Virus record (IMG/VR): IMGVR_UViG_3300018080_000186
Span: 1 to 62,665 of that record
Length of the DNA: 62,665 nucleotides
Source: a virus
Strand: one strand, 5' to 3'
The notes below the pieces were generated by a model that ran no database searches, had not been told where the DNA came from, and saw only the letters and a program-made list of their open reading frames with translations. Below, piece by piece: positions 1 to 62,665 of this stretch (positions within the stretch are counted from its first letter, which is position 1; each line of letters begins with the position of its first letter). Made by a program: the position numbers and the translations under genes.

Positions 1-123
1 CAACCCCCTTCGCATCTACAGCGGCTACGGCAAGGTCAAGGTCTCCCTCGGCATCATGCTCCCGGCCCTCGTCGGCGGCACCGGTGCTCTGGGTTCGACC
101 CTTCTCATGCGGGCGTTCGTGCC
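1..123. repeat. Terminal overlap, left copy (identical to 62543-62665)
   Basis: The first 123 bases are identical to the last 123. An open reading frame beginning at 62490 crosses the junction in phase and ends at 610. This is what an assembler leaves at the ends of a circular molecule, and it puts the unique length at 62,542 bp. A true short terminal repeat of a linear virion genome cannot be excluded, but a gene running straight through it makes that less likely. Confidence 0.9.
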
Positions 124-610
124 CCCGGAGAAGAAGGACGAGTCGGGCAACGCCATCATCGAGGACGGGAAGCCCAAGCTGAATCCGTTCTGGAAGTACG
201 CCGGCCTCATCGGCGGCGGCATCGGCGTCGTGGCATCCTGCATCCTGGGTCCGTTCCAGGGATGGGGCGCGGCCGTCGCCGGTGGCATCACCGCGGCCAT
301 GGCGGGGCTCACGGCCCAGTTCGCCAACATGGTCGTGCCCGAGGAGAAGCGTCACCTCGCGCAGTACGGTCGCCGCTACGGAGCGGTCACCTCGATCCCG
401 GCCAGGGATCGGACGGCGCGGGTCAACGTGATGTCCGGTCTCGGTCGCAAGGGTCTCGGCTCGGGCCAGGGCAACGGCTTCGGCCTCGTCTACGCCCAGG
501 AGACCGGTGGCCAGCAGGCAGGACGCACCCCCGGCGGGTTCATGCCCGAGGCCGTCACGGCGCAGGCCAACATGGCCGCCTTCGGGACCGGCACCGGGAT
601 GGGCTTCTAG
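2..610 (+). CDS. Three-helix virion membrane protein (3' part)
   Basis: This is the 3' part of a 220-residue protein whose start codon is at 62490; the window shows residues 19-220 here. The whole protein has a Lys/Arg-rich N-terminus (residues 3-12), two Tyr-Gly motifs (YKGYG near 14-18 and YSGYG near 24-28), then hydrophobic segments at roughly 33-55, 82-104 and 107-128, and a Gly-rich tail. It lies just upstream of the candidate capsid genes. The likely role is an abundant structural protein of a virion membrane; no family is recognised. Confidence 0.8.
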   Translation, partial: NPLRIYSGYGKVKVSLGIMLPALVGGTGALGSTLLMRAFVPPEKKDESGNAIIEDGKPKLNPFWKYAGLIGGGIGVVASCILGPFQGWGAAVAGGITAAMAGLTAQFANMVVPEEKRHLAQYGRRYGAVTSIPARDRTARVNVMSGLGRKGLGSGQGNGFGLVYAQETGGQQAGRTPGGFMPEAVTAQANMAAFGTGTGMGF

Positions 611-670: not shown

Positions 671-1357
671 ATGGCATCAGTCGACAGTGTCCGTCTAGCG
701 ACGGGTCAGATTTTCGACATCACCGACTTCGGTCATTACCCTCTGTGGTCCACGTTCGCGGGGATCATGGCGGGGATGCCGAGCGAGGGTGTCTGGGCAT
801 TCAACTACACCACCGGCCAGACCATTCCGGGCACGAACCGGAGGGCCAACGAGCTGGACACGAACCTGAGCTCGGCCAACCAGGGCCTGGGCTACGCCGA
901 GGAGATGATGGTCTACTCCGTCACCCTCGAGCTGCCCCAGCGTCCCGGCCTGCAGGATCCCGAGGAGCAGGAGCAGCCGGACAACCTGCTGCTCCACGAC
1001 ATGCAGATCCTCGCGGAGCGGTCCCTGTTCCAGTTCTACGTGACGCGCAAGGTCTACACCGAGGGCGTCATCACCCGCTACCCCTTCGGTGGCGGCCTCT
1101 GGGCGGAGACCAACATCAACAACGCGGAGCTCGTCAACAACGGGTTCCCGGTGGCCGGTGCACAGCGCCCGCTCGCGCTGCCCATCCACCTGATGTCCGA
1201 GGAGCCGTTCTACGCGCTGCTCCGGTTCTTCCCCGATTCGGGAACCCTCCTGAACACGTTCCAGGAGGAGACCCCCGGGGATCCCGAGTCCCGCGTGGAG
1301 GTCGGCTACGACATCCGGTGCTGGCTCGACGGCATCCGTCGGCGCCCGGTGGCGTAG
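671..1357 (+). CDS. Candidate major capsid protein A
   Basis: A 228-residue protein with no membrane segment and no signal peptide, rich in alternating hydrophobic stretches and Gly/Pro/Asn turns as in beta-sandwich folds, and ending in an Arg-rich strand (WLDGIRRRPVA). The start has a good AAGGAG site. It lies directly before a second beta-rich protein of 283 residues. The pair resembles in size the two single jelly-roll capsid proteins of P23-77-type membrane phages (known family feature), but I see no diagnostic motif. The capsid role is inferred from position, size, composition and the flanking hairpins. Confidence 0.4.
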   Translation: MASVDSVRLATGQIFDITDFGHYPLWSTFAGIMAGMPSEGVWAFNYTTGQTIPGTNRRANELDTNLSSANQGLGYAEEMMVYSVTLELPQRPGLQDPEEQEQPDNLLLHDMQILAERSLFQFYVTRKVYTEGVITRYPFGGGLWAETNINNAELVNNGFPVAGAQRPLALPIHLMSEEPFYALLRFFPDSGTLLNTFQEETPGDPESRVEVGYDIRCWLDGIRRRPVA

Positions 1358-8404: not shown

Positions 8405-8671
8405 ATGGAGCTCGTTGCCTACGGCGGGTACGGGGATGTGCAGGACGAGATCCCTGATGTCGCACTGGAGCGCCAACAGCTCTACGAGGAGCGCCTCGCT
8501 CGTGCGACCGAGGCGGCCATGGTCGCCGCATCGCAGGCCGAGATCAACGCAGCCCTCGCCGCCCAGGCCCAGGAGACCAATCACTCCATCATCATGGGGT
8601 TCGTGGGAACAGGGGCCGTGGGTATCATGGTGTGGGCCCTGAGCATGGCCTTCACTCATCGCAAGAGGTGA
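8405..8671 (+). CDS. Tail-anchored YGGYG protein
   Basis: An 88-residue protein that shows the late-protein architecture in its simplest form: AYGGYG at residues 5-10, an Ala/Glu-rich helix, a single membrane helix near 63-83 and a terminal HRKR. Confidence 0.8.
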   Translation: MELVAYGGYGDVQDEIPDVALERQQLYEERLARATEAAMVAASQAEINAALAAQAQETNHSIIMGFVGTGAVGIMVWALSMAFTHRKR

Positions 8672-8674
8672 ACG

Positions 8675-10798
8675 ATGTCCAAGCGGACTGGTCCATTCGG
8701 CATCATCCCCCCAGGGGTTCCCGTCGAGAGAGGTCCCTACCCGGAGACCATCGAGTGGCGGCACACGCACGAGACCACGGACAACCCCGAGTTGTTCATG
8801 GGATGGCTCTCGGACATCCAGGCGTCCCTCGCCCTCGTCGGGCTCTCCATGGTGTCGCAGACCACGGATGGTCGCACAGTCTGGACCGCGGCCGGTCACA
8901 AGGTCGCGGAGCTCGTCACCACCATGGACGGAAAGAAGGGAACCGTCTACGCACGCCCCATCGGGGGGCAGGCCCCGTCCCCGGGGATCCGTGGAAGGGT
9001 CGCTGCAGAGGAGCTGAGGAGGAGCTCGCAGTGGCTCGGCTACGGGCAGAGGACGGCCACGTTGCGTCCAGGCGGAGCAACCCACGTCCCGGCCGAGGAT
9101 CCGACCGACGCGCCGACCTGGGAGTCCACTGAGGTCGGCACCGTCACCGCGGTGTCCACGGCCACGGGGGACGTGACTCTCCGCGCACCGACATGGAGCG
9201 CGGCGACTGGGAAGGCGATGCCGCTGTTCCCGATCCCCGAGGACCTCTATCAGCAGGCCCTGGCAGATCTGAAGGCTGGAAAACTGAAGTACTACGGAGG
9301 CATCGGCCTCGGCGTCCTCGGGGCCCTTGGTGGTGTCGCGACCGCCATGATGAGAAAGAGTCTCGGAACAGCCGGAACGGTGGCCGCTGGAGCCGCGTCC
9401 GTCGGTGGTGTCGGCGGAGGCAGCCTCCTCGCCGTGAACGGGAAGAAGTCGCAGGAAGAGGCCGTGCTCGTCATCGAGCAGTACGAAATGCAGCAGGACT
9501 CGAGTCGGGGCACTTCGGAGATAGAGATCAGTGAGGAGGTCGAGGTTCTGGTACCGGATACCGATTCTGTTCAGGCAGTCGCCGGCGGATCAGCCTTCCG
9601 CGTCCTTCCGGCCGGTGAGATCGTCAACGGCATCGAGTCGCTTCCCGGGGATGCAAAGGTGACCATTCGCGATCTGGAGGTTCCAAGCACGACGTCTCAT
9701 TTCGACTACGATGCCGACGACATCTACGCGAATGTTTACTGGGATGGCGACCGCTCGCTGCTCTTCAGCAACATCCCCAGGGAAGGCCAACTGCTCATTC
9801 GCATCGGAGTCCACAGCAACGGAAACGTTGGGTATGGAGTCGAGGGACATGAGGGGTTTCAGCGGAAGAAGGGGAAGCAGGCCCCGGCATTTCTCGACGG
9901 TGCAATCCTTGCCAACGATCTCATTCAGCAGGGGGATGTGGGAGTGTTTGCGAACGATCTGTTCGCCAAGATCGGGCTCACCTACAACTACGGACTGTGC
10001 ATCGGGGATCGCGGCGGTGGAGCGCAGGATGGGTTCGGCCTTGCCCTGAAGAACTACAGGAGCCCCTGGGAGGTGATCTCTCACTGGGCCGAGCGCACCA
10101 TTGGCATCCTCGTCAAGATTGTCAGCGCATACGTCGGGGCGCAGGCGGCAACGAGTACCATCGGTGAGATGGTTTTCACCGCAGCGATGACTGGCGTGGA
10201 TGCCCTGCAGGTCCTTGCGACGGGAGGATCTCTCAGCGATCTGAAAAACATCGGACTGGGCCTGGCCAAGAAAATGGGGTTGCGACTGTTCCTCGAGTAC
10301 GGACGGGATTTCTGCATCAATGCCAACGAGAAAATACGGGCCGGGTTCTTGGAGCATCTCGGAAGGGAGTCTTCCCTGTACCAGTTCGCCAACTCGTTCT
10401 ACGAAACCATCCAGGACTACAAGAGCTCACTGATGGGCACCGTGGGTGGAATGGACATCTGGGACGAGCTCAAGTACATCCCGCAGTCGATGGGGGTGGC
10501 CGATCATGGTCTTCTGGAGAGAGTCAACGACGTCTGGAGAGAGAAGCAGGCGCTGGCGATCCAGACCTACGAGGACACGATTGTGGCCTATGGGACCTCG
10601 ATGCCCGCAAAGCAGTTGAACTACATCGAGGCGATGAAGCAGAAAATCACTGACAAGATGGGGAGACTGGTCAACGCGCACGAGATGATGATCGCGTCCA
10701 ACCTCAACGGGATGAACGAGAGTTTTCACGGTTACAGCAAGACCCTTATCGACGCTGGAGCACAGTACGACCAGGTCAGGATCGTCCTGTACCGATAG
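8675..10798 (+). CDS. Largest virion protein, with central membrane segments
   Basis: A 707-residue protein, the longest in the genome. Residues 1-190 are soluble and contain a GYGQ motif near 120. Gly-rich hydrophobic segments lie near 206-225 and 230-252. The long remainder is mixed beta/alpha and ends in helices. From about base 9500 the codons become visibly less GC-biased than in the first third, suggesting the two parts have different histories. Candidate roles include a vertex, DNA-delivery or penton-complex protein, but nothing in the sequence decides this. Confidence 0.75.
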   Translation: MSKRTGPFGIIPPGVPVERGPYPETIEWRHTHETTDNPELFMGWLSDIQASLALVGLSMVSQTTDGRTVWTAAGHKVAELVTTMDGKKGTVYARPIGGQAPSPGIRGRVAAEELRRSSQWLGYGQRTATLRPGGATHVPAEDPTDAPTWESTEVGTVTAVSTATGDVTLRAPTWSAATGKAMPLFPIPEDLYQQALADLKAGKLKYYGGIGLGVLGALGGVATAMMRKSLGTAGTVAAGAASVGGVGGGSLLAVNGKKSQEEAVLVIEQYEMQQDSSRGTSEIEISEEVEVLVPDTDSVQAVAGGSAFRVLPAGEIVNGIESLPGDAKVTIRDLEVPSTTSHFDYDADDIYANVYWDGDRSLLFSNIPREGQLLIRIGVHSNGNVGYGVEGHEGFQRKKGKQAPAFLDGAILANDLIQQGDVGVFANDLFAKIGLTYNYGLCIGDRGGGAQDGFGLALKNYRSPWEVISHWAERTIGILVKIVSAYVGAQAATSTIGEMVFTAAMTGVDALQVLATGGSLSDLKNIGLGLAKKMGLRLFLEYGRDFCINANEKIRAGFLEHLGRESSLYQFANSFYETIQDYKSSLMGTVGGMDIWDELKYIPQSMGVADHGLLERVNDVWREKQALAIQTYEDTIVAYGTSMPAKQLNYIEAMKQKITDKMGRLVNAHEMMIASNLNGMNESFHGYSKTLIDAGAQYDQVRIVLYR

Positions 10799-10807
10799 GA
10801 GAGGAAC

Positions 10808-11221
10808 ATGAGAAGCAACCTGATGACAGCCTACGGAGCTCCTCCTGGAATCCCGGAGGGCTACGAGCTCGAGACGCTGACCACTCCCTATGTCCACGAG
10901 GACGTGAGTGACGCGGTCGACTTCGCGGTGGAGATCCAGAACCTGTCGGACGAGCGTGGGTACGTGGTGCAGGGCATCGAGCCGGTCCAGGATCCCACGA
11001 CGGGCCTCTGGGGGGTCTACGTGGAGTACTGGAGGCCGCCCGTTGGGGCAATCCGTTCGGGAGAGGTGACCCAGGAGCCCGCGGAGATCCTTCGCACCCC
11101 GAGCAACACGACCGAGAAGAAGGGCTGGCCGTGGTACGCCTACGCTGGCATCGGACTGGGAGCCCTCGCCGTCCTGGGCGGTGGCTACCTCATCTACAAG
11201 GGAAGCAAGAAGAGGAGATGA
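10808..11221 (+). CDS. Tail-anchored late protein, AYGAP motif
   Basis: A 137-residue protein with TAYGAP at residues 7-12, a compact soluble domain, a membrane helix near residues 108-130 and a terminal KGSKKRR. The same layout recurs in the next three genes, which look like a diverged family of anchors. Confidence 0.8.
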   Translation: MRSNLMTAYGAPPGIPEGYELETLTTPYVHEDVSDAVDFAVEIQNLSDERGYVVQGIEPVQDPTTGLWGVYVEYWRPPVGAIRSGEVTQEPAEILRTPSNTTEKKGWPWYAYAGIGLGALAVLGGGYLIYKGSKKRR

Positions 11222-11223
11222 CC

Positions 11224-11820
11224 ATGAGAACGGCAGCGTTCCAGAGGAACATGAGGCAGGCTGGAATCCCGTCGCTGTACAGGGGCTACGGCCGTCAGAA
11301 CATGATGAGCTACGACGGGTACGGAGCGTGCAGCGGCTGCGGCCTCGGCCAGGAGAACGGGGAGGTCCCATTCGACCCCAACGCCCCCACCGAGGAGGAG
11401 ATCGCGGCGATGATGGCCGAGCTCCCGCCTCACATCATCGCGGATCCGAAGAAGGGAGTCCTGCTCTACCTGCAGAGTGCGGTGGCTCTCGACAGGGGGA
11501 CCGCAGAGGCGATCAAGCTCGCCGTTCAGCAGGCACTCGAGCACCACGACGTCATGGGTGTCGAGCGAATCGACATCGTCCAGCAGGAAGGCGTCTACTA
11601 CGTCGAGGCCCTGTTCTGGGGCGACATCGACGAGGACATGCTGCAGGGCGGGATCAACGAGTTCGAGATCGCGGAGGGCATCCAGGGCTTCGTGCGACTC
11701 GCCACCGAGGAGGACCGCAAGGTCGAGACGCCGAAGTGGCTGATCTACGGCGGCATCGGCGCGGGCGTGGTGGCCCTGGGTCTCGTGGGCCTGGTCATCT
11801 GGCGTCCCTGGAAGAAGTAG
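11224..11820 (+). CDS. Tail-anchored late protein with two YG motifs
   Basis: A 198-residue protein with YRGYG near residues 19-23 and YDGYGACSGCG near 30-40, including a CxxC pair. A soluble domain rich in Glu/Ile follows, then a membrane helix near 174-194 and a terminal PWKK. Confidence 0.8.
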   Translation: MRTAAFQRNMRQAGIPSLYRGYGRQNMMSYDGYGACSGCGLGQENGEVPFDPNAPTEEEIAAMMAELPPHIIADPKKGVLLYLQSAVALDRGTAEAIKLAVQQALEHHDVMGVERIDIVQQEGVYYVEALFWGDIDEDMLQGGINEFEIAEGIQGFVRLATEEDRKVETPKWLIYGGIGAGVVALGLVGLVIWRPWKK

Positions 11821-11829
11821 AGGTCTGAG

Positions 11830-12177
11830 ATGAGGTACGGAGCAAGCATCGACGCAGTGGCCTACGGGCAGATGGACGAGCGCCCCGCAGGACTGGATCC
11901 CTCGTGGGTCCTGAGGACCGAGCGGGACCCGACCGTGAGCGACAGCTACGACGTCGTGGCCGAGCGGATCGCGGCCATGGAGGAGAGGCTGGTCTCGAAG
12001 GGGTGGTACCCGCACGGGTACACCATCCCAGAGAACCCGGACGGGACCTACGGCCCTGCGGAGGTCCAGTATTGGGGTCCTCCCGAGGAGAAGGGTCCGA
12101 ACTGGGGTCTGATCGTCGGGGCTGGCGCGGCCGGCCTCTCGGTCATCGGGATCGTCCTGGCCATCGTGGAGAGCTGA
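11830..12177 (+). CDS. Tail-anchored late protein, VAYGQ motif
   Basis: A 115-residue protein with RYGAS and VAYGQ within the first 15 residues, a soluble domain and a C-terminal membrane helix ending in VES. Unlike its relatives it lacks a basic tail. Confidence 0.8.
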   Translation: MRYGASIDAVAYGQMDERPAGLDPSWVLRTERDPTVSDSYDVVAERIAAMEERLVSKGWYPHGYTIPENPDGTYGPAEVQYWGPPEEKGPNWGLIVGAGAAGLSVIGIVLAIVES

Positions 12178-12190
12178 GAGGAGGAGCACC

Positions 12191-12829
12191 GTGAAAATAG
12201 TCATGAACGGTCACAACAGCCAGATCCTGACCCCATCGTGGCCCGGGATGAGAGGATACGGCACCGATCCGGTCATCAATCACGGTGCCCCTCAGTCCCC
12301 CCAGGCGGGACCGGACGGGACCTTCAGGCCCGACTGGGGGTCCAGGGGAGCCACGGCCATCCCCAAGAGGCCCACGAGCAGGCCCGAGAGGGGCCTCAGC
12401 GCGTCCGTGGAGGCCCCTGGGGCCACCGAGACGTCCATGGGCACCTCCGACGCCGAGCCGACGCCTCAGGAGATGCTGGAGGCCGTCGCGGAGACGATGG
12501 AGACCATGGAGGAGGGCATCGACCAGGCCACGGCCATCCTCCAGGAGGCGCAGCAGGAGCTCCCCGAGGACGCGGCCGGGGATCAGCCCACGGTCACGGC
12601 GACCGAGCACCCGTACGATGTGCCGAACCCCGAGGTGCAGGCCACCGCCAGCGACGTCCCGAGCGGGGAGTACGTGGGCGGGACGGAGATCGGTCCCGAG
12701 GCCGGCAACGGGGTCACCTACCCCGACACCGAGGAGGAGAAGAGCAGGTGGCCCCTCTACGTGGGCGTCGGGGCCGGGATCGGGCTCCTGGGACTGCTCG
12801 GCCTGGCCGCCTGGGGAGCGAGCAAGTGA
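12191..12829 (+). CDS. Tail-anchored late protein with acidic low-complexity stalk
   Basis: A 212-residue protein. RGYGTD lies near residues 18-23. Residues 30-180 are rich in Pro, Ala, Thr and Glu and form a probable extended stalk, and one membrane helix near 188-208 ends in ASK. It starts at GTG 12191 behind GAGGAG. Confidence 0.75.
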   Translation: MKIVMNGHNSQILTPSWPGMRGYGTDPVINHGAPQSPQAGPDGTFRPDWGSRGATAIPKRPTSRPERGLSASVEAPGATETSMGTSDAEPTPQEMLEAVAETMETMEEGIDQATAILQEAQQELPEDAAGDQPTVTATEHPYDVPNPEVQATASDVPSGEYVGGTEIGPEAGNGVTYPDTEEEKSRWPLYVGVGAGIGLLGLLGLAAWGASK

Positions 12830-12832
12830 TCC

Positions 12833-14067: not shown

Positions 14068-14514
14068 ATGCCGCCGAAGTGTACCAGGATCGACCGCGTC
14101 GAGCTCTGCACGACCACCACCGATGTCTGCGTCGAAGGTCCGATCACGAGCAGCGATCAGGTCTACCGGGTCTGCAAGGAGCTGATGATCTGCAACCGGA
14201 TGCAGGAGGAGTTCTGGGTCCTGTGCATCAGTCCCCGCGGCGACATCGTGAGCTACGCCCCCGTGACCAAGGGGACGACCGATGAGACCATGGTCATCCC
14301 CGCGGACGTGATGAGGATCGTTCTCGCCTCTGGGGTTCGCTCCATGATCCTGATCCACAACCACCCGAGCGGAGATCCCCAGCCGTCCGCGCAGGACCGC
14401 CACCTCACCATGAGGATGATGGAGGCGGCGAAGATGGTGGGGTTCACGGTGCTCGATCACATCATCGTGGCCGAGAGCAGCTACATCAGCTTTCGAGACG
14501 AGGGGATGATGTGA
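14068..14514 (+). CDS. RadC-like JAMM-domain protein
   Basis: A 148-residue protein matching the RadC/MPN+ family: HNHPSGDP with His97 and His99, and Asp110 completing the H-x-H-x10-D metal site. Only the JAMM domain is present; the N-terminal HhH region of host RadC is missing. JAMM proteins are zinc peptidases or deubiquitinase-like, but the function of bacterial RadC is unsettled. Its place among virion genes is notable. It overlaps the next gene by one base (TGATG). Confidence 0.8.
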   Translation: MPPKCTRIDRVELCTTTTDVCVEGPITSSDQVYRVCKELMICNRMQEEFWVLCISPRGDIVSYAPVTKGTTDETMVIPADVMRIVLASGVRSMILIHNHPSGDPQPSAQDRHLTMRMMEAAKMVGFTVLDHIIVAESSYISFRDEGMM

Positions 14515-15191
14515 TGGCGAGGCGGTTCGACTACTCGACGCTCTACCGCGAGGAGCCGCTCTCGTTCAGAGGATACGGCCAGCCTCAGCGCACGGTTCCG
14601 TGCGGCGAGACTCAGGTGAAGCCCACGCCGAAGAGGAGGGCGCCGGTACCGAAGAGCTACAGGGGGCTCTCGGCCGTCGAGCTCAAGCACTGCGATCTGC
14701 CGGACCACTACTTCGACCGCGAGAACCTGGCCTGGGGCACGCAGGTGGAGTTCGAGCACACCGATGACCCCGCAGTGGCGAAGTGCATCGCGAAGGCCCA
14801 TCTGCTCGAGCGCCCCGACTACTACGATCTGCTCGAGAAGTACGTGGAGGGACACGGCATGAGAGGACTCGAACGCAGACCCACCGGAGAGATCCGTCGG
14901 CCACGCGGGATGGGCAAGAAGCCGAGCTGCAGCCCGGTCGATGCCCAGGCCATGGCAAAGAAGCACCCGAAGACCTTCAAGGTGCCGAGCAAGGCCAAGC
15001 TCAAGAAGATCAAGAAGGGCGACACGGTGAAGATCACGGTGGCCGACGAGAGGTTCTGGGTCACGGTCACGAGCGTGAAGGGCAACAAGGTCTGCGGAAA
15101 GGTCGACAACGAGACCTCGGGCGAATGCAAGAAGTTCACCTACGGCAAGAAGGTGTGCTTCAAGAAGAAGAACATCTACGACGTCTGGTGA
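14514..15191 (+). CDS. YG-motif protein with DUF5661-like region
   Basis: A 225-residue protein. FRGYG lies near residues 17-21. The middle (about 70-110) carries the EFEHT...A..IA..HLLERPDYY pattern I associate with the phage domain DUF5661. The last 60 residues form a basic small beta domain with four Cys. There is no membrane helix. Function unknown. Confidence 0.7.
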   Translation: MARRFDYSTLYREEPLSFRGYGQPQRTVPCGETQVKPTPKRRAPVPKSYRGLSAVELKHCDLPDHYFDRENLAWGTQVEFEHTDDPAVAKCIAKAHLLERPDYYDLLEKYVEGHGMRGLERRPTGEIRRPRGMGKKPSCSPVDAQAMAKKHPKTFKVPSKAKLKKIKKGDTVKITVADERFWVTVTSVKGNKVCGKVDNETSGECKKFTYGKKVCFKKKNIYDVW

Positions 15192-20427: not shown

Positions 20428-21453
20428 ATGGGGGCTCGAGTCTACAGTCGGTTTGGCCGGCGGGCCCGAGCCCCCTCTCGTTCCCTGGGCTTGATGTACG
20501 AGGACGAGGCCTTCGATAAGGCCGCTCGGGAGTGGGGCACCACCGACAATCCATACGACGCCGGATACATCCTGCCGGACGGATCCCTGCTGGACATGAG
20601 TGAGGGAGGTGGCGAGGGGAGAACTCTGGATCACAGGGCCGTCCAGGGTATCCTGCAGCGCGATTACCCACGTCAGGGTGCCATGGTCGAGTTCATGAGT
20701 CGTGGGGCCATCAGGATGCACGCCAGCCCCCGGGAGAGAGCCCTGTTCCTCGACGTGGTCCGGCGACCCACCGATGCCCAGGACTCCACGATCCGACGTC
20801 TCGTGCCATGGTTCGAGGAGGTCCGTGCGGAGATCACCAACCCGGACACTGGGTACGTCGAGGTCTGGGACCACTGGGGGGATCCTGGTGGCAAGAGACT
20901 GCACCCGCGGCCCGTCATCATGTTCCTGGACGAGCGCGGGATGCGCGGCCTCGGTGCTCGAGGACGAGCCGACTGGATCATCGTCGCTAGGGACCCGATC
21001 ACCGGAGAGCAGGTGACATGGGAGACGAGCTCTCATTCCGATGCGAGACGGAGGGCCGAACGGATCCGCAGGGAGCAGTGGCACGCAGATACGGAGTATG
21101 GCCGAGAGGCGGTCAGGTATCAGGATGTGAGGATCATCAGCAAGAGCCAAGGCCATATGCTCGACGGCCTCTCCGGGTTCCCGAAGGTGACCAGGTCCAC
21201 CCGCAAGGGCAAGAAGTTCAAGGTCAGGGTGTGCAGGAAGATCCGAGGAGAGCAGCGGTGCAAGACCATCCACTTCGGTGCGACGGGGTATCGCATCAAG
21301 CCGGGGACGAAGGCAGGTGACAGCTACTGCGCCCGCAGCGCCGCCCAGCAGGGAGCGGATGACCCGTTCAGCGCCGCGTACTGGTCCAGGCGGATGTGGG
21401 GTTGCGAGGGCAAGAAGAGCGTCAAGGGCAAGGCACTGAAGGTGGGAAAATGA
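20428..21453 (+). CDS. Two-domain late protein with FGATGY basic C-terminal domain
   Basis: A 341-residue protein; ATG 20428 directly follows the previous stop. Residues 45-75 hold GYILPDGSLLDMSEGGG...LDHR, a pattern I recall from phage polyvalent-type proteins. The last 90 residues are Lys/Arg-rich with four Cys and a HFGATGY...DSYCARS...YWSRRMWGC segment like the small basic FGA/YW domains of capsid-associated proteins in some large membrane viruses. That resemblance is recall, not alignment. Confidence 0.65.
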   Translation: MGARVYSRFGRRARAPSRSLGLMYEDEAFDKAAREWGTTDNPYDAGYILPDGSLLDMSEGGGEGRTLDHRAVQGILQRDYPRQGAMVEFMSRGAIRMHASPRERALFLDVVRRPTDAQDSTIRRLVPWFEEVRAEITNPDTGYVEVWDHWGDPGGKRLHPRPVIMFLDERGMRGLGARGRADWIIVARDPITGEQVTWETSSHSDARRRAERIRREQWHADTEYGREAVRYQDVRIISKSQGHMLDGLSGFPKVTRSTRKGKKFKVRVCRKIRGEQRCKTIHFGATGYRIKPGTKAGDSYCARSAAQQGADDPFSAAYWSRRMWGCEGKKSVKGKALKVGK

Positions 21454-22379: not shown

Positions 22380-23213
22380 ATGACCCTCGAGGAGTTCCGC
22401 ACGATCATGAGCAAGGGCGTCAACGGTCTGGGAGATGGAAGCATGAGACCCGGTATCACCTACACCTACTTCTTCGCGTTCGACCCGGAGATGAGCACCT
22501 GGATCGGGCCGTTCGACACGTTCGAGAGGGCCCTGCAGGAGATCGCGATGCGCTACTACTCCTACCACGAGAGGTACGGCGTGGAGGACGCGCAGCAGGA
22601 CGGCTACAAGGTGGGTGAGATCAGGACGAGCGACCCCGAGGATGCCGAGCGCATCATGGACACGAAGGGCCCCGAGCGAGACTACCCGGTGCGGGTCCAG
22701 GTGACCGATCGGGTGGCCTACGCGCACGGTGGAGGCCGGACCATGAGGGTTGCCCGAGACCAGAGCCTCAACGGCCTGGGAGGAGAAGACATGGACGACA
22801 TCGAGCAGAGGGCGGAGCAGCTCGCCTGGAGGGACACCCGAGACTCGTTCTGGGAGGGCCCGATGGACGAGAGCGACCGTACGAACTGGGCGGCGACCAT
22901 CGCGCAGCACCGCGACAGCGATCCTCTCGCCGTGAGCAACTACCGGGTCATCTCCCGGGACCTGGAGTCGAAGTTCCCCGACGACGTCGAGGAGCACCGA
23001 TTCAGCCACTGGGCGGTGGGCTGGATGGACCACCTGTTCGTCCGCATCCGGGACGACCAGGGCAACTTCACGCCGGCGTTCCTCCGAGTCATCGAGTGGG
23101 AGGAGGAGCTCGAGAACTACCCCGTCGCCAACGAGGAGGACCTCGGAGAGGTGGAGATGGAGATGGGCTACGACCCCGACACTGGGGAGTGGTCTGAGAG
23201 CATCGTGCACTGA
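22380..23213 (+). CDS. Last gene of the late operon, acidic soluble protein
   Basis: A 277-residue acidic protein without membrane helices, rich in Glu/Asp/Trp. It may consist of two similar halves, since each opens with an Asn-Gly-Leu-Gly pattern (VNGLGD near 16, LNGLGG near 136). Function unknown. A hairpin-rich gap follows. Confidence 0.75.
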   Translation: MTLEEFRTIMSKGVNGLGDGSMRPGITYTYFFAFDPEMSTWIGPFDTFERALQEIAMRYYSYHERYGVEDAQQDGYKVGEIRTSDPEDAERIMDTKGPERDYPVRVQVTDRVAYAHGGGRTMRVARDQSLNGLGGEDMDDIEQRAEQLAWRDTRDSFWEGPMDESDRTNWAATIAQHRDSDPLAVSNYRVISRDLESKFPDDVEEHRFSHWAVGWMDHLFVRIRDDQGNFTPAFLRVIEWEEELENYPVANEEDLGEVEMEMGYDPDTGEWSESIVH

Positions 23214-56015: not shown

Positions 56016-56492
56016 GTGAGTTCCAACCAGCACGACAAGCTCGGGCTGACGCCAGAGCAGATCGAAGCACTCGAAAATCCTGAGAAGCGAAAGCAGGGCG
56101 ACACCCGCGAGCTCACGCCCGAGCAGCGCAGGGCCGTCGAGAAGCGCAAGCAGGTGACCGCCCCCACCGTCTCGTCGTTCCAGCACCCAGATCAGACCTG
56201 GAAAAAGATCCAGGGACGTGAAGGACCAAGCCCCTTCGACAAGCTCCTCGAGCACAAGGGGGCGATGCTCGAGGAGGACGTGTGCTGCAAGTGCCGTCAC
56301 TTCGTGGACAAAAAGCAGGGACAGGAGGAGTTGAAGCGCGACCAGTTCTGGGAGCGTGTCTTCAACAACCACGGCGATGGCACCGATTTCAAGCTCAAGC
56401 ACATCGGTGATCCCAGGGCTTACTCCATCTGTCGTCTGAAGGGATGCGCCACGCACGAGCTCGGCATGGACTGCAAGGAGTTCGAGCAGTGA
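56016..56492 (+). CDS. Zinc-binding protein with disordered N-terminus
   Basis: A 158-residue protein from GTG 56016 behind GGGGAG. Charged N-terminal half, then CCKCRHF and C..KGC...MDCKEFE, a Cys pattern common in phage proteins. Unknown. Confidence 0.65.
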   Translation: MSSNQHDKLGLTPEQIEALENPEKRKQGDTRELTPEQRRAVEKRKQVTAPTVSSFQHPDQTWKKIQGREGPSPFDKLLEHKGAMLEEDVCCKCRHFVDKKQGQEELKRDQFWERVFNNHGDGTDFKLKHIGDPRAYSICRLKGCATHELGMDCKEFEQ

Positions 56493-56776
56493 CCCCAGTC
56501 GAGCTCCTGCTCTACTGGCTGGCCCCAACCCTCGCGATTGTCTACGTGGTCGGCTACTCGTTGCTGTTCGATTCCATTCGGAAGTGGACTCGGTGGCCGC
56601 AGATCATCAAGGACCTGCTCGGTTGTCCGATGTGCATCGGTGGTTGGGCCGGGATGTTCGTAGGATTCATGAACTGGATGCCGGTCGAATGGCCGGCGGG
56701 GATGCAACACGTCGCCCTCGGGTGCTGTCTGTCGATCTCGGCGCAGTATCTCATCGAGGTTTTTGGAAGGGAGTGA
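56489..56776 (+). CDS. DUF1360-like membrane protein
   Basis: A 95-residue protein from GTG 56489. Helices near 5-25, 42-60 and 68-88, with LLGCPMCIGGWAGMFVG between, the C-x2-C-x2-W pattern of DUF1360-type proteins. Inner-membrane location expected. Confidence 0.65.
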   Translation: MTPVELLLYWLAPTLAIVYVVGYSLLFDSIRKWTRWPQIIKDLLGCPMCIGGWAGMFVGFMNWMPVEWPAGMQHVALGCCLSISAQYLIEVFGRE

Positions 56777-56779
56777 GAC

Positions 56780-58753
56780 ATGGCAGCGAAGGGAAGGAAG
56801 CAGGTCGAGAAAATCAGTGGCAGTCCTCTGCAGAAGCTCCTGGCTCTGGCGCAGGAGCACAACCTCGAGCACTACCGATGCCTGGTCCGTCGGCGCAAGC
56901 CCGACGGCACGATGAAGATCATCAAGACCTACAAGCATCTCAAGCCGGAAGAGATCGACCACATGGTGGACTGGATCCCGGAGATGTACGGAGGCGGTGA
57001 CTTCGAGGTGGAGATCACGCACCCGATGGATCCTCAGCAGAGGTGGTACAACTGGGGCTTCGAGGCGGAGGGAGATCCCGTCGAGCCTCAGCGCAAGGGG
57101 TCGACTCCCGTCAGTGGCATCGACCAGTCCCTGCAGGGGGCGCAGGCGCAGCAGCAGTACCCCCCGTGGAATCCTCCGCAGCAGCATGCCCCGATGGCGC
57201 AGCAGGGCCCACCGAGACCGGGGATGCCCCCCGGATCTCCCCTCGCCGGGTACGCCCCTCCCGGAATGCCCCAGTACAACCCGTGGGGCTACCAGCGCCC
57301 ACAGGCCACCCCGCAGTCCACAGGCCCCTCGGCTCGCGAGAGGGCCCTCGAGCAGGAGATGGCGGCGCTGAGGAAGCAGAACGAGGACATGCTCCGCAAT
57401 CTCCAGGACCAGCGCCACCAGGAGGAGCTCCGTCGTCAGCGCGAGGAGTCGGATCGGCAGTTCCGCGAGCTCAAGACGAGCATGGACCAGCAGATCCAGC
57501 TCCTGAAGAACGAGCTCACGCAGAACCGCAACCGCCCCGACGACGGCGGCGGCATGAAGGATCTGTTCAACATCTTCATGAAGAGCCAGGAGGCCAACCA
57601 GACCATGCTCACCTCGCTGATGAAGCGAGACAGCGAGAGTGCCAAGGACCAGCTCAAGCACATGCAGTCGCAGATGGAGAAGGATCTGGAGTTCCGCAAG
57701 GAGATGTACCAGATGGCGATGGACCAGAAGGATCCATCGCAGGCCGCGGCGATGCTCGACGTGATGGGCCAGCAGACCGCCTCGATGCTCAACCTCATCA
57801 ACCAGGCGGTGAGCTCGGGTCTGCTCGGCCAGGCCGACGGAGATCCCGCATGGCTGAGAGCGGTGCAGCAGGGGCTGCAGGGGCTGCAGGAGTTCGGGCA
57901 GAATTTCCTCACGGCCAAGCAGCAGGAGGCCGCGATGGCCCAGCTCCGTCAGCCACCGCAGCCCGGAGCCCCGAGGTTCCCCCCGCAGAGACCCGGAGCC
58001 CCGCCGCAGCAGGGCCCACCGATGCCTGGACAGGCCCCCGCGGCGCCGGCGATGCCGCCACAGGGCCCGCAGGCACCGACGGCGGTACCGGGGATGCAGG
58101 CGGCCGGACTCGGCCAGCCCCCGGCCCAGGCGCAGCAGCAGGAGCAGGAGCCCGAGGATGAGGAGGAATACGAGGAGGGAGGGGCACCTCAGGCTCCCCC
58201 CTCTCTCATCGTCCCGATCCAGAAATACGAGGAGGGAGGGGCACCTCAGGCTCCCCCCTCGCTCATCATTCCGATTCAGAGGTTCACCAGCGCCATCGCG
58301 GATGGGGCACCCCCGGAGATCGTCGCGGACCTCATCTACTCCTTCGTGGACTTCCTCCGTGCCAACGACATGCTGCCGCCGGAGTGGCGCAACGTCTACA
58401 CCGACCCGGCCGACACCATCGACAAGTTCCTGCAGGCGTTCGTTCCCCACATCCAGCCCACCCGTGACTACCTGACTGAGGTCGGGGGCTACTTCCTCGA
58501 GAACGAGCGCGAGTACGGTCCCGACAGCGAAGACGGGAGCCCCGGGCCGAGCGCGAAGCTCCAGGTCGTGGATTCTCCAACCCCGCCGGCGTCCCCCGAC
58601 GAGGAGGAACCGGAGGTGCAGGAGGTCGAGGCGAAGGAGAAGGTGATCGAGGAGGAGGAGACGGAGAGCGACAAACCCGATCCCGACATCGAGCCACCCT
58701 CACCGCTCGAGCCGCCCAAGGACGAGAGCCCGCAGCCCCCGGCCTCGGAGTAG
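56780..58753 (+). CDS. Large Pro/Gln-rich coiled-coil protein
   Basis: A 657-residue protein. An N-terminal basic domain (1-80), a Pro/Gln/Gly-rich stretch (110-180), long coiled coils (190-310), a helical region, a second Pro/Gln-rich stretch, a tandem 19-residue repeat (58169-58282), a compact helical domain (about 500-590) and an acidic Pro-rich tail. It lies just before the late operon. A scaffold or assembly organiser is plausible; no tape-measure features. Confidence 0.7.
   Translation: MAAKGRKQVEKISGSPLQKLLALAQEHNLEHYRCLVRRRKPDGTMKIIKTYKHLKPEEIDHMVDWIPEMYGGGDFEVEITHPMDPQQRWYNWGFEAEGDPVEPQRKGSTPVSGIDQSLQGAQAQQQYPPWNPPQQHAPMAQQGPPRPGMPPGSPLAGYAPPGMPQYNPWGYQRPQATPQSTGPSARERALEQEMAALRKQNEDMLRNLQDQRHQEELRRQREESDRQFRELKTSMDQQIQLLKNELTQNRNRPDDGGGMKDLFNIFMKSQEANQTMLTSLMKRDSESAKDQLKHMQSQMEKDLEFRKEMYQMAMDQKDPSQAAAMLDVMGQQTASMLNLINQAVSSGLLGQADGDPAWLRAVQQGLQGLQEFGQNFLTAKQQEAAMAQLRQPPQPGAPRFPPQRPGAPPQQGPPMPGQAPAAPAMPPQGPQAPTAVPGMQAAGLGQPPAQAQQQEQEPEDEEEYEEGGAPQAPPSLIVPIQKYEEGGAPQAPPSLIIPIQRFTSAIADGAPPEIVADLIYSFVDFLRANDMLPPEWRNVYTDPADTIDKFLQAFVPHIQPTRDYLTEVGGYFLENEREYGPDSEDGSPGPSAKLQVVDSPTPPASPDEEEPEVQEVEAKEKVIEEEETESDKPDPDIEPPSPLEPPKDESPQPPASE
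58169..58282 (+). repeat. Tandem 57-bp repeat within the coiled-coil gene
   Basis: Two units (58169-58225, 58226-58282) encode YEEGGAPQAPPSL followed by I-V/I-P-I-Q-K/R. The few differences are mostly silent or conservative, so the duplication is recent. Confidence 0.8.
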
Positions 58754-58756
58754 GCC

Positions 58757-59206
58757 ATGGTCGGGGTGCTGGCGGGATGGCTCCTGCGAAAATGGTGGGA
58801 GAGGCGCAACGCGCCGCCCCCTCCCGAGCCGGAGCCGGATCCCAACGGAATCTACGAGGGAACCGTGACCCTCTCGAGCGTCGTGGCGGGCCCGGTTCGT
58901 CGTGAGTGCAAGATCAGCGAGCCGCTGGACGAGGACGGCACCCGGGTGCTCCTCGAGGAGGGCGAGAAACTCGTGGAGACGACGCAGTGGGCCACGAGCA
59001 TGAAGAGCCGGGAGGACGGTCGAATCACGATCCGCTTCGAGGGAGACAGCGGTGCTCGCGACGAGATGATGAGGGCCGGAGTCGGAGACGAGTACCGCCT
59101 CGAGTTCTATCTCCTGAAGAAGGAGAAGCCACCCGTGCGGCCCGCACCATGGGAGGGTGGACATCGACCGTTCGGTGACGATGCGGGAGGAGGGATGTTC
59201 TCATGA
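58757..59206 (+). CDS. Protein with short N-terminal membrane anchor
   Basis: A 149-residue protein: a short hydrophobic start (VGVLAGWLL) with RKWWERR, a Pro/Glu linker, then a beta-rich domain and Gly-rich end. ATGA overlap with the next gene. Unknown. Confidence 0.65.
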   Translation: MVGVLAGWLLRKWWERRNAPPPPEPEPDPNGIYEGTVTLSSVVAGPVRRECKISEPLDEDGTRVLLEEGEKLVETTQWATSMKSREDGRITIRFEGDSGARDEMMRAGVGDEYRLEFYLLKKEKPPVRPAPWEGGHRPFGDDAGGGMFS

Positions 59207-59898
59207 GCACGAAGAAGGATTCAGTCATGTTGTGCTTCGCGCCGATGCACAACACGAAGAACCGTCGGGACGCGAACGAGTTCCAGCGCCAGGCCGCCTA
59301 CTTCCTGGACTACCACAACCAGGACATGGGGATGCTGGTGCTCGTGGACAACAAGCAGTCGAAGTCGCGGATGCGAAAGACGGTGTACGATGCCATCGAG
59401 GAGTACTGCGGCGGACAGATCTGCTCGGTCCACTTCTTCTGCCACGGGTACCGCAAGGGGATCCAGTTCGGATTCACGACGAGGAACCTCGAGCTGCTCG
59501 CCAGAAAGATCTGGGCCGCAACGAGTTCGGCGCCAATCGTGACCTTCTATTCCTGCGACGTGGGACGTGACGCTGATCGCAACCGCCAGGACGACCTGCA
59601 GACCATCGGTGGCGACGGCGGGTTCTGCGACGAGTTCCGCGACGAGCTCTGTCGAGTGGGCGCAGTCAACTGCAGGGTCGATGGGCACACCACGGCGGGT
59701 CACACGACCAGGAATCCCCACGTCCGCCGCTTCAACGGTGCCGGCTCGATGACCGGCGGCCTGGGCGGCTTCTACCTCGTGTCGCGGGGCAAGAAGGATC
59801 TCTGGAAGATCTGGCGACAGGAGCTCACTGGTGACTACCGCTTCGAGTACCCGTTCCAGACCGAGAACGAGATCATCGACTACCTGAAGAGCCTCTGA
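59203..59898 (+). CDS. Caspase/CHAT-fold-like putative protease
   Basis: A 231-residue protein. HFFCHGYRKGIQFGF (His81 before Gly) and TFYSCDVGRD (Cys118) are spaced and embedded in strands like the His-Cys dyad of clan CD peptidases or DUF4347-type proteins. It is the last gene before the late promoter and could process virion proteins, but activity is inferred from the dyad alone. Confidence 0.5.
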   Translation: MSTKKDSVMLCFAPMHNTKNRRDANEFQRQAAYFLDYHNQDMGMLVLVDNKQSKSRMRKTVYDAIEEYCGGQICSVHFFCHGYRKGIQFGFTTRNLELLARKIWAATSSAPIVTFYSCDVGRDADRNRQDDLQTIGGDGGFCDEFRDELCRVGAVNCRVDGHTTAGHTTRNPHVRRFNGAGSMTGGLGGFYLVSRGKKDLWKIWRQELTGDYRFEYPFQTENEIIDYLKSL

Positions 59899-59962
59899 CT
59901 TCCCTCTTTGAGGCCTGAAAAGCCCATCTCGCAAGACCCCTGTCAAGTACGAATTTGGGGGT

Positions 59963-60023
59963 GGTATACCTTAAGGTAAGACGGTCCCGGCCCGACCGGC
60001 ATTCCGAAAACCCGTGGTATAGA
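59963..60023 (+). promoter_or_regulatory. Late operon control region
   Basis: GGTATACC (59963-59970) overlaps the perfect 12-bp palindrome TACCTTAAGGTA (59967-59978). A TATAGA -10-like box lies at 60018-60023, but no good -35 is present at the right distance, so an activator at the palindrome is likely. It drives the late unit that crosses the contig ends. Confidence 0.5.
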
Positions 60024-60031
60024 TGCCTTGT

Positions 60032-60655
60032 ATGTCGGGAGCGGTATCCACAGACACGCAAGTGGCAGGCTACTCAATCGTCGGAGACGACGACCGGGTA
60101 GAGCTCATCCGTCAGATGGTCTTCGAGAGCATCAAGGACCCGCTTGTGCTCTGGACCGCTCGACACATCACAGCGAAGTGCCAAGGGCGCGACGATCACT
60201 GCGAACTGGAAGCCTTGTACGAGGCCGTCAAGAAGGGTCCGATACCTCTGCCCGATGGGGACAGCGGGAAGGTGATCGAGACACCCGGATTGAGGTTCGT
60301 CAACGACCCGCGATTCACGGACACCTACCCTACCGCGGGGAAGATCCTGAGGTGGCAGGCGCAGGGGGCGAACGGGGAGGACTGCGACGGCCACACGATC
60401 TTGGTCGATGCGATGCTCAACGCACTGGGCTGGCTCACGGGCGGGGTGATCGCGAGCAAGGACGGCAACGAGTTCGTCCATGTGTTCCCGGTCGCCGGCT
60501 ACCCCAAGGATGAACCGACCGAGTGGATCCCGATGGACACCACGGTGAAGGAGGCGAGTGTAGGTTGGTGGCCGCCCAAGACCCTCGTGAGGCGCATGAG
60601 GATCTACGGATTCCTGCCAAACTTCCAGGCGAAGGGAAGGGAGCTCAGACTATGA
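60032..60655 (+). CDS. Transglutaminase-like cysteine protease
   Basis: A 207-residue protein (ATG 60032; ATG 60023 lies within the promoter box). GEDCDGH (Cys118), FVHVFPV (His150) and MDTT (Asp169) form the Cys-His-Asp triad of the transglutaminase-like fold, with the typical CD..T.L..A.L...G pattern. As the first late gene it is a good candidate for cutting or crosslinking particle proteins. Confidence 0.65.
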   Translation: MSGAVSTDTQVAGYSIVGDDDRVELIRQMVFESIKDPLVLWTARHITAKCQGRDDHCELEALYEAVKKGPIPLPDGDSGKVIETPGLRFVNDPRFTDTYPTAGKILRWQAQGANGEDCDGHTILVDAMLNALGWLTGGVIASKDGNEFVHVFPVAGYPKDEPTEWIPMDTTVKEASVGWWPPKTLVRRMRIYGFLPNFQAKGRELRL

Positions 60656-61737
60656 ACATCATCAGCGGCGCAGCGATGCCGGGTGGCCCCTGGATTCTCC
60701 CCGAGGAGTTCGAGCACCCGAACTGGTTCACGCTTCAGAGCGCGAGCTCTCAGCAGATCCTCGAGGGCCGTGGGTTGCCCTCGTTCCCGCAGTACAGCGG
60801 CTACGGCGCCGCTCGCATGGAGCGACCGGCAGCGATGCGGCGCAGCGCAGCCCGGAGAAGGTTCGTTCAATCTCATCCGAGAACACCAGAAGAGTTCCGT
60901 CAGGAGCTCAACCAAGCAGAGCAAATGCTGGCCAACATGGGTTACAGCATCACCTCCAGGGAGATCGGTCACTTCTATGGTGACTCAGCAGGGAACCAGA
61001 TCGAATACTACAGCCAAGTGGGCCCATACGGATTCCACATGGCCAAAGAGTTCTACAAGCCTGACGGAGGATACTATTCCACCGTTTTCTGGGATGTATT
61101 GGATCGCAACGTCAGGGAGTACGCCGAGAGTCATCCGCAGACGCAGGCCACGCCATCCCGCCGCGGAGCTCTCCGCGGCCTCGGCGCCGCAGCTCCTCGC
61201 AGTGCAACGAGATCCAGGAGACCGACAACTCCGACGCGGAGGGGTAGCTACACTCACCCCCCCACGTTCGAGAACGCAAAGCGACAGCTCGAGTCGGAAC
61301 TGCGGAGTCGCGGGTGGACGCAGTTCCGGGAAGAGGTCGACCCATACGAAAGTCCACGCGGCCCTGGCGAGGACCACTACTTCTACGTGAGGGGCCCGGA
61401 CCAGGAGTACCAGTACGCCTGGTATCAGACACAGCCACCCGGAGGCCCTACCCCATACGGATTCTCTGGACACGTCGAGTTCAGTATCCTTCGGGTGGCC
61501 GATGCTCCGGCGCAGAGATCTCGTACGCACCTTCCCCAGAGAAAGGTTCCGATGCGAGGCCTCGGCCGGAACATCTCCTGCGCCCAGACCATGGGTGGAG
61601 AGCTCCAGTGCTCCTACACGGAGGCTCCCCGGGGCCGCGTCCGTCAGTCGATGCTGATGGGTCTCGGCGCCGGCCCGCGGGCGAACTCGAGGCGGCTCCC
61701 CTGGTCGGCGTTCCGAGGCGAGGTTGTCCTGCCGTGA
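60652..61737 (+). CDS. YG-motif late protein with duplicated domain
   Basis: A 361-residue protein. YSGYGAAR near residue 48, then two related domains (about 75-160 and 205-290), each starting with EF/ENxxxxL and carrying Y/H-rich strands, joined by an Arg/Thr/Pro linker. A basic C-terminal region follows. Function unknown. Confidence 0.7.
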   Translation: MNIISGAAMPGGPWILPEEFEHPNWFTLQSASSQQILEGRGLPSFPQYSGYGAARMERPAAMRRSAARRRFVQSHPRTPEEFRQELNQAEQMLANMGYSITSREIGHFYGDSAGNQIEYYSQVGPYGFHMAKEFYKPDGGYYSTVFWDVLDRNVREYAESHPQTQATPSRRGALRGLGAAAPRSATRSRRPTTPTRRGSYTHPPTFENAKRQLESELRSRGWTQFREEVDPYESPRGPGEDHYFYVRGPDQEYQYAWYQTQPPGGPTPYGFSGHVEFSILRVADAPAQRSRTHLPQRKVPMRGLGRNISCAQTMGGELQCSYTEAPRGRVRQSMLMGLGAGPRANSRRLPWSAFRGEVVLP

Positions 61738-61931
61738 GAGTGGTCGTTCCCAGGAGCTACCGCAGGCTCGAGCAGATCCCCGAGGAGCTCGCGCTGCCGG
61801 CCTCCCAGATCGGGGCCACGCAGCCGTCGTCCCGGGGTGAGGCCATCTCGGTGATCGGCGTCACCCTCGCGTTCTTCTCCACCCTCATGATCTTCGCATC
61901 ACTGATGGGACAGGGGGCCGAGAAGCGATGA
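61734..61931 (+). CDS. Small single-span membrane protein
   Basis: A 65-residue protein from GTG 61734, overlapping the previous stop (GTGA). Basic N-terminus, one membrane helix near 40-60 and a short GAEKR end. Confidence 0.7.
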   Translation: MRVVVPRSYRRLEQIPEELALPASQIGATQPSSRGEAISVIGVTLAFFSTLMIFASLMGQGAEKR

Positions 61932-62260
61932 GGAAGCGCAAGCCCAGGAAGGTGCCGATCCACGATCCTGGCCTCGGGGCCAATCTCGACGTGATGACCC
62001 TCTCGGGCTACGGGGAGAAGCGCAAGGGTCTCTGGCAGGAAGTCTACGGGGGCAAGCGCAACTACCCGAAGCTCAACGGCACTGGCAAGAAGAAGTGCGT
62101 GAGCTGGAAGACGGTCGGGAAGGGATGCAAGTGCAAGCCCCAGTGCGTGAGCTTCACCTCGCGATCCAAGGGCATGAGCAAGAAAGCAGCCGTCTCGCAA
62201 TGCGAGCGGAAGTGTTCAACCAAGAAGCGCCGGAAAAAGAGCCGACGCGGGAGGAAGTAA
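61928..62260 (+). CDS. Basic Cys-containing protein with SGYG motif
   Basis: A 110-residue very basic protein: SGYGEK near residue 26, then six Cys within a Lys-rich region and a KKRRKKSRRGRK end. Resembles small DNA-condensing or capsid-associated proteins. Confidence 0.7.
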   Translation: MRKRKPRKVPIHDPGLGANLDVMTLSGYGEKRKGLWQEVYGGKRNYPKLNGTGKKKCVSWKTVGKGCKCKPQCVSFTSRSKGMSKKAAVSQCERKCSTKKRRKKSRRGRK

Positions 62261-62489: not shown

Positions 62490-62665
62490 ATGGCAAAGAA
62501 GCGCAAGAAGTCCAAGAAGCGCCGCTCGTACAAGGGGTACGGCAACCCCCTTCGCATCTACAGCGGCTACGGCAAGGTCAAGGTCTCCCTCGGCATCATG
62601 CTCCCGGCCCTCGTCGGCGGCACCGGTGCTCTGGGTTCGACCCTTCTCATGCGGGCGTTCGTGCC
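62490..62665 (+). CDS. Three-helix virion membrane protein (5' part)
   Basis: Start of the protein completed at 2-610. ATG 62490 follows AGAAGGAGGAAACC. The visible N-terminus is a Lys/Arg run, two Tyr-Gly motifs and the first hydrophobic helix. The frame continues across the circular junction. Confidence 0.85.
   Translation, partial: MAKKRKKSKKRRSYKGYGNPLRIYSGYGKVKVSLGIMLPALVGGTGALGSTLLMRAFV
62543..62665. repeat. Terminal overlap, right copy
   Basis: Identical to 1-123; see the left copy. One of the two should be dropped when the circle is closed. Confidence 0.9.

What the first reader, a model, noticed from the sequence alone, without database searches (positions are those of the whole stretch)
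59203..60655. Two putative cysteine proteases at the late-operon boundary
A caspase-fold-like protein (His81/Cys118) and a transglutaminase-like protein (Cys118/His150/Asp169) flank the late promoter. With no classical head protease, one or both may mature virion proteins, perhaps at the shared Tyr-Gly motifs.
Basis: inference. Interest (0 to 1): 0.7.

Follow-up and report, generated by a model that had tools for sequence, protein, structure and literature searches.

The report
Virion cysteine protease of tailless phage
One of the two suspected proteases is a conserved cysteine enzyme shared by a group of tailless, membrane-containing bacterial viruses and may cut their particle proteins into shape, while the other is an unrelated accessory protein.

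Summary
Both genes are real, but they are two separate stories. The second (P2, 60023-60655) is a transglutaminase-fold cysteine hydrolase. Its family matches Pfam Transglut_core (E 4e-12) and keeps Cys121/His153/Asp172. It is the late gene best conserved between this virus and six related IMG/VR contigs, which share its gene order. [quoted passage not shown] The first (P1, 59203-59898) belongs to a phage family with a caspase-like His/Cys signature. P1 was absent from all nine P2-bearing contigs found, and 11 of 23 P1-bearing contigs match tailed-phage terminase or portal families, so it is a poor candidate for this virus's maturation protease. The shared motif is real and sharper than 'YG': Tyr/Leu/Met-x-Gly-Tyr/Leu-Gly in late proteins, near N-termini and at domain boundaries, resembling the adenovirus protease site. 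My best reading is that P2 trims virion precursors at such sites. Family, triad, conservation and motif are shown; proteolysis and the cut site are inferred. No usable structure of P2 was obtained.

The parts
60023..60655 (+). P2: transglutaminase-fold cysteine hydrolase, first gene of the late operon; predicted triad Cys121/His153/Asp172. The start codon is uncertain: ATG 60023, ATG 60032 or GTG 60062.
59203..59898 (+). P1: phage protein with a caspase-like His81/Cys118 signature; last gene before the intergenic gap; accessory
59899..60022 (+). Intergenic gap between the two genes, with two GTGGTATA copies (59961, 60014) and the palindrome TATACCTTAAGGTA (59965-59978); presumed late promoter, unproved
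60652..61737 (+). 361-aa late protein next to P2: two tandemly duplicated domains, each ending [LM]RGLG; polyprotein-like layout and candidate substrate
61928..62260 (+). Basic late protein with LSGYG near its N-terminus; candidate substrate
62490..62665 (+). 5' part of a 220-aa basic and transmembrane protein (KGYG, SGYG, SGLG) that runs across the 123-bp terminal repeat to base 610; candidate substrate
1..610 (+). 3' part of the same 220-aa protein
671..1357 (+). 228-aa protein, matched by a profile of a virion-module protein present in six of six relatives
   Evidence: E 1.3e-5
14514..15191 (+). Late protein in which motif copies flank a DUF5661 domain (FRGYG, YRGLS, then DUF5661, then MRGLE and RGMG); candidate substrate
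20494..21453 (+). Late protein with MRGLG and LDGLS between segments; the DUF5754 match starts four residues after LDGLS; candidate substrate
22380..23213 (+). Late protein with VNGLG and LNGLG; candidate substrate
8405..12829 (+). Stretch with late proteins (8405, 10808, 11224, 11830, 12191) that have an N-terminal Tyr-Gly motif and a C-terminal transmembrane segment; candidate substrates
56489..58753 (+). Two genes upstream of P1 (95-aa membrane protein; 657-aa protein) whose homologues lie just upstream of P2 in the relatives
14068..14514 (+). RadC-like JAB-domain protein in the late operon; rival protease candidate

Best explanation
P2 is a transglutaminase-fold cysteine protease that belongs to the virion module of a group of tailless, internal-membrane viruses related to Salisaeta icosahedral phage 1. 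It most likely acts during or after assembly on precursors of late virion proteins, cutting at short glycine motifs: [YLM]-[RSKN]-G-[YL]-G in this virus and basic-[YF]-G near the N-termini in the relatives. The cuts would free mature membrane and DNA-condensing proteins from short, often basic, N-terminal extensions and would split a few multidomain proteins. P1 is a separate accessory protein with a caspase-like signature and does not mature the virion. Shown: transglutaminase family, conserved triad, conserved gene position, motif enrichment. Inferred: that P2 is a protease rather than another thiol enzyme, that the motif is its site, and that it acts in the particle.
For: Family: Transglut_core in 5 of 9 members, best E 4.2e-12. 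Cys121 is invariant in 9 of 9, and the search pattern did not require it. SSIP-1 gp34, annotated 'structural protein', was found by tblastn without any pattern, matches the P2 profile at E 1e-25 and keeps Cys, His and Asp. P2 is the window gene best matched by the relatives' gene clusters (E 6.8e-42; next 1.9e-8, 1.3e-5, 3.4e-5, 1.5e-4) and keeps its place in the gene order. Motif: [YLM][RSKN]G[YL]G 12 times in late proteins against 0.27 in shuffles, and 0 in 74 early proteins (pattern chosen after looking). Layout: tandem domains each ending [LM]RGLG in the gene beside P2 (E 9e-6); motif copies beside DUF5661 and DUF5754; 0 of 6 copies inside Pfam envelopes, 1.06 expected. The adenovirus protease site is (M/I/L)XGX-G or (M/I/L)XGG-X (passage of PMC3386624).
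Against: No cleavage data and no usable model of P2 (pLDDT 34.9). A tandem duplication copies its flanking motif in any case, so that layout is not independent proof. In SSIP-1, N-terminal [YF]G is not enriched (3 against 4.8), although G[YLFM]G is (16 against 8.4). G[YLFM]G is also raised in two of ten control loci (L056, L062) and N-terminal [YF]G in one (L062, 8 against 4.4). The relatives' motif (basic-[YF]G) is not the same as the window's. Orthologues in the relatives are not independent counts. His153 and Asp172 were required by the search pattern.
Confidence: 0.4

Rival explanations
1. P2 is a virion-borne entry enzyme: a thiol peptidase or amidase that opens the cell wall at infection, and the YG/GLG motifs are only linkers or docking signals.
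For: Papain-like phage enzymes are often wall hydrolases (passages of PMC10318531). SSIP-1 gp34 is annotated structural and ends in a hydrophobic stretch.
Against: The late region already encodes a lytic transglycosylase (16086-16895, SLT E 1e-4), and the relatives carry a separate homologue of SSIP-1 gp54. P2 itself has no predicted membrane segment and no Pfam wall-binding domain. This does not explain the late-only motif.
Confidence: 0.25
2. P2 is a true transglutaminase that cross-links virion proteins covalently, stabilising a large shell; the motifs mark flexible tails that are joined rather than cut.
For: Transglut_core family with Cys-His-Asp; many virion proteins with short tails that carry the motif.
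Against: No conserved Gln or Lys context at the motif (position counts). Most prokaryotic members of this superfamily are thought to be proteases (recalled, not tested).
Confidence: 0.12
3. The YG/GLG motif is a sorting or docking tag that brings late proteins to the membrane or capsid, and P2 has no part in it.
For: The motif lies near N-termini of many single-span membrane proteins and often follows a run of Arg/Lys in the relatives, which would also suit DNA or lipid contact.
Against: A docking tag need not sit between tandem domains or on both sides of one domain.
Confidence: 0.2
4. P1, the caspase-like protein, is the maturation protease.
For: Conserved family with a His/Cys signature; it lies beside the late operon.
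Against: Found in 0 of 9 P2 contigs; P2 in only 1 of 23 P1 contigs; 11 of 23 P1 contigs match terminase or portal families. P1 neighbours are mixed: holins, tail fibre, baseplate, helicase. His and Cys were demanded by the search pattern, so their invariance proves nothing alone.
Confidence: 0.05
5. The RadC-like JAB protein (14068-14514) is the maturation protease.
For: JAB-domain family, late operon, RadC E 2e-35.
Against: Present in 1 of 11 records searched (G032); absent from the nine other P2 contigs and SSIP-1.
Confidence: 0.04

Closest known systems
[quoted passage not shown]
   Same: P2-profile match E 1e-25; Cys, His and Asp kept; encoded upstream of most other structural genes; annotated structural protein
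   Different: 304 aa with a C-terminal hydrophobic segment; about 26-35% identical to the family members that match it; annotated only as a structural protein, no enzyme named; found in a cultured phage
Adenovirus maturation protease (AVP) and its sites (M/I/L)XGX-G and (M/I/L)XGG-X
   Same: Virus-encoded cysteine protease of a non-tailed virus; glycine motif of similar shape in minor capsid and basic core proteins (passage of PMC3386624)
   Different: AVP belongs to another protease family (recalled); no DNA or peptide cofactor and no cleavage shown here; P2 is a transglutaminase-fold enzyme
Prohead proteases of tailed phages
   Same: Would fill the same role, maturing particle proteins
   Different: No terminase or portal match in the window or the nine P2 contigs; different fold
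DUF4347 / CHAT caspase-like domains (for P1)
   Same: Weak profile matches over the His and Cys stretch
   Different: Below Pfam's cut-off for the window protein; the P1 family has its own conserved C-terminal half (DGGFADxLRD, HxTxGHTTxNP)

Membership tests
Transglutaminase-like superfamily (P2) | Pfam Transglut_core profile match | tested here: met
   5 of 9 family members, best E 4.2e-12; P2 alone and a direct PF01841 search of the window give no match
Transglutaminase-like superfamily (P2) | Cys-His-Asp triad | tested here: met
   C121, H153, D172 invariant in 9 of 9 and kept in SSIP-1 gp34; only Cys was free of the search pattern within the nine
Transglutaminase-like superfamily (P2) | Triad geometry in a fold model | tested here: inconclusive
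   single-sequence model, pLDDT 34.9
SSIP-1-like tailless membrane viruses | Homologue of a structural protein of SSIP-1 in a late gene block | tested here: met
SSIP-1-like tailless membrane viruses | No tailed-phage terminase or portal | tested here: met
   0 of 10 for phrog_2 and phrog_12 (window and nine P2 contigs; family labels recalled)
SSIP-1-like tailless membrane viruses | Packaging ATPase | tested here: not met
   the only classical Walker A motif in any frame of 100 codons or more is DnaB; SSIP-1 has gp40. Hence I call the virus related, not a member.
SSIP-1-like tailless membrane viruses | Tailless icosahedral particle with an internal membrane | not testable with these tools
   indirect only: 18 of 41 late against 4 of 74 early proteins with a predicted transmembrane segment
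Adenovirus-type proteolytic maturation | Consensus site in several virion precursors | tested here: inconclusive
   [YLMI].G[YL]G 17 against 1.95 in late proteins, but the strict [LMI].G.G only 20 against 14.0
Adenovirus-type proteolytic maturation | Cleavage of precursors by the protease | not testable with these tools
   needs virions or purified protein
Caspase-like fold, clan CD (P1) | Strand-helix order with His after strand 3 and Cys after strand 4 | tested here: inconclusive
   model gives E7-14 H21-37 E43-48 H54-69 E75-81 H93-107 E112-118 with H81 and C118, but pLDDT is 44.5; caspases top the VIA list at Z 5.8, tied with other folds; no caspase among Foldseek's 50 best
Caspase-like fold, clan CD (P1) | Profile match to a clan CD family | tested here: inconclusive
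   DUF4347 in 8 of 20 members, best E 5.5e-4; CHAT in 1, E 8.2e-4; that these families belong to clan CD is recalled

The most novel reading that the evidence does not exclude
Bacterial tailless membrane viruses have an adenovirus-like maturation programme run by a transglutaminase-fold protease carried in the particle, which cuts many membrane and DNA-condensing precursors at a Tyr/Leu-Gly motif and splits polyprotein-like genes. Proteolytic maturation in non-tailed viruses would then also exist in bacteria, with a different enzyme and a similar site.
Probability: 0.27. Interest if true: 0.85.

Novelty: new variant of a known kind. Interest (0 to 1): 0.6.

Why it matters
One published model (passage of PMC6260650) derives the maturation protease of eukaryotic double-jelly-roll viruses from a eukaryotic transposable element, with a bacterial phage ancestor credited only with capsid protein, polymerase and ATPase. 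A conserved virion cysteine hydrolase plus a repeated glycine site in tailless bacterial viruses would make proteolytic maturation of such phages directly testable, and SSIP-1 is a cultured phage in which to test it. I found no paper linking transglutaminase-like enzymes to tailless membrane phages in the listings (open-licence library only).

Tried and rejected
Rejected: P1 as maturation protease; RadC as maturation protease; a sigma-70-type late promoter in the gap (none found).

Led nowhere: exact-peptide searches with P1, P2 and virion proteins; tblastn in cultured phages and plasmids with window proteins and with three relatives' proteins; sequence searches of solved structures (nothing meaningful); NCBIfam. 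The P2 model was useless and the P1 model weak. Foldseek's best for P1 were KaiC at E 7e-3 with no caspase among the 50 rows; VIA-align put caspase-1 first at Z 5.8, within 1 of unrelated folds. The last viral scan with a closer P2 alignment returned only four contigs already known.

Weak result kept out of the argument: small membrane proteins near P1, 24 of 108 against 16.1 expected, p 0.01.

Rows dropped: 4 of 13 stretches (L005, L006, L007, L012) and 7 of 30 (L018, L019, L024, L025, L027, L032, L044) were broken or unrelated frames. A3 leaves out L022, L023, L029 and L033 (short, cut or near-duplicates); A4 leaves out L014. In one search, L057 was dropped because P1 was not called there, leaving 20 loci; one search scanned 88 of the 108 neighbour proteins. 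My gene calls are a simple codon-score method, not a curated annotation.

Full report
The window is a complete-looking virus record. It is 62,665 bases with a 123-base direct terminal repeat, so it is probably circular; one 220-aa gene runs across the junction. The late operon starts at P2 (60023), passes the junction and continues to about 23.2 kb. In my gene calls it has 41 late genes against 74 others. Of the late proteins 18 of 41 have a predicted transmembrane segment, against 4 of 74 of the others. Neither the family scans nor targeted searches show a terminase or portal, and the only classical Walker A motif in any long frame is that of DnaB.

The two reported proteins are real ORFs with the reported residues. 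Exact-peptide and tblastn searches found no relative of either. Degenerate DNA patterns built around the presumed active sites did: 9 of 13 stretches for P2 and 23 of 30 for P1 were true relatives.

P2. Its relatives match Transglut_core (5 of 9, best E 4.2e-12). Cys121, His153 and Asp172 are invariant in the nine-row alignment. The search pattern required His and Asp but not Cys, so Cys is the independent test there. SSIP-1 gp34 came from an unpatterned tblastn search and keeps all three at profile E 1e-25; its record calls it a structural protein. SSIP-1 is described as a membrane-containing icosahedral phage of Salisaeta with a 44-kb circular dsDNA genome (passages of PMC6356626 and PMC6260650).

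Six P2-bearing contigs (G002-G006, G009) share a gene block with the window: a small membrane protein, a 465-563 aa protein, P2, tiny basic proteins, a basic-then-transmembrane protein, and a ~230 aa protein. Profiles of the relatives' clusters match window genes 60023 (6.8e-42), 56489 (1.9e-8), 671 (1.3e-5), 3602 (3.4e-5) and 56780 (1.5e-4); P2 is far the best conserved.

P1. The family has 23 relatives beside the window protein, 27-47% identical to it for the 19 aligned. It shows HGxxxGxQ and YxC at a nearly fixed spacing, as expected of a caspase-like His/Cys pair, plus a conserved C-terminal half. His and Cys were in the search pattern, so their invariance is circular. Fold support is DUF4347 or CHAT in some members and a weak model with the expected strand order. 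P1 is missing from 9 of 9 P2 contigs, while the P2 profile is found in 1 of 23 P1 contigs (G032). Terminase or portal families match 11 of 23 P1 contigs, counted over together (8 and 5, two shared), and none of the window and nine P2 contigs. P1 neighbours are mixed. It is best seen as an accessory gene inserted just before the late operon here; its function is open. tblastn with two family members found no match in 50,697 phage records.

The motif. Aligned, the sites read [YLM]-[RSKN]-G-[YL]-G: 12 copies in 8 of 41 late proteins against 0.27 expected, none in 74 early proteins (chosen after looking). Of 52 motif copies, 28 lie in the first 40 residues against 11.9 expected. In 145 late proteins of the relatives, [YF]G in the first 35 residues is 62 against 31.1, with 12 against 11.0 in 83 upstream genes. 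There it often follows a run of Arg/Lys, and it is kept in 5 of 6 orthologues of the basic-transmembrane protein. SSIP-1 does not show the N-terminal form, and generic G[YLFM]G is raised in two of ten control loci.

Layout. The protein beside P2 has two tandem domains (E 9e-6), each ending [LM]RGLG. In 14514-15191 a DUF5661 match (residues 68-109, profile 16-61 of 65) begins, extrapolated, at the residue where YRGLS ends, and MRGLE and RGMG follow it. A similar domain stands alone as a 70-aa gene in G032. In 20494-21453 the DUF5754 match starts four residues after LDGLS. Six motif copies fall in the five late proteins with a Pfam domain that I checked, none inside the domain, 1.06 expected: suggestive only.

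Reading. A thiol hydrolase that is the best-conserved late gene of the group and is annotated as structural in SSIP-1, together with a repeated glycine motif at N-termini and domain junctions of late proteins, is what a virion maturation protease and its sites would look like. The closest parallel in shape is adenovirus, whose protease cuts (M/I/L)XGX-G and (M/I/L)XGG-X sites in minor capsid and core proteins. Papain-like enzymes often favour a large hydrophobic residue next to the cut residue (recalled), which would suit [YFL]-G followed by the cut. None of this shows cleavage. A wall-degrading, cross-linking or docking reading remains open, and I put the protease reading at 0.4.

Noticed in passing
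window 1-62665: No classical Walker A protein other than DnaB in any long frame, so no recognised genome-packaging ATPase, although SSIP-1 has one (gp40).
   Followed up: partly
window 14068-14514: RadC-like JAB-domain protein inside the late operon; also in G032 but in no other P2 contig or SSIP-1.
   Followed up: partly
window 59965-59980 and 36616-36631: A palindrome near TATACCTTAAGGTA occurs in the gap before P2, and a related one (2 mismatches) in the gap between the divergent genes 35907-36326 (-) and 36721-36900 (+); possibly a shared regulator site.
   Followed up: no
L046-L051, L066-L069 (G002-G006, G009): A group of 21-75 kb virus contigs with the same P2 gene block, no terminase or portal match, and four consecutive ~300-aa late proteins, three of them related to each other.
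   Followed up: partly
L016-L045 (P1 loci): A family of caspase-like proteins in uncultivated phages, without a Pfam or PHROG family of its own in the window scan; two members gave no match in 50,697 phage records.
   Followed up: partly
L055 (G032) 12803-13015: A free-standing 70-aa protein similar to the DUF5661 middle segment of the window's 14514-15191 protein; G032 also holds P1, a P2-like gene and RadC.
   Followed up: partly
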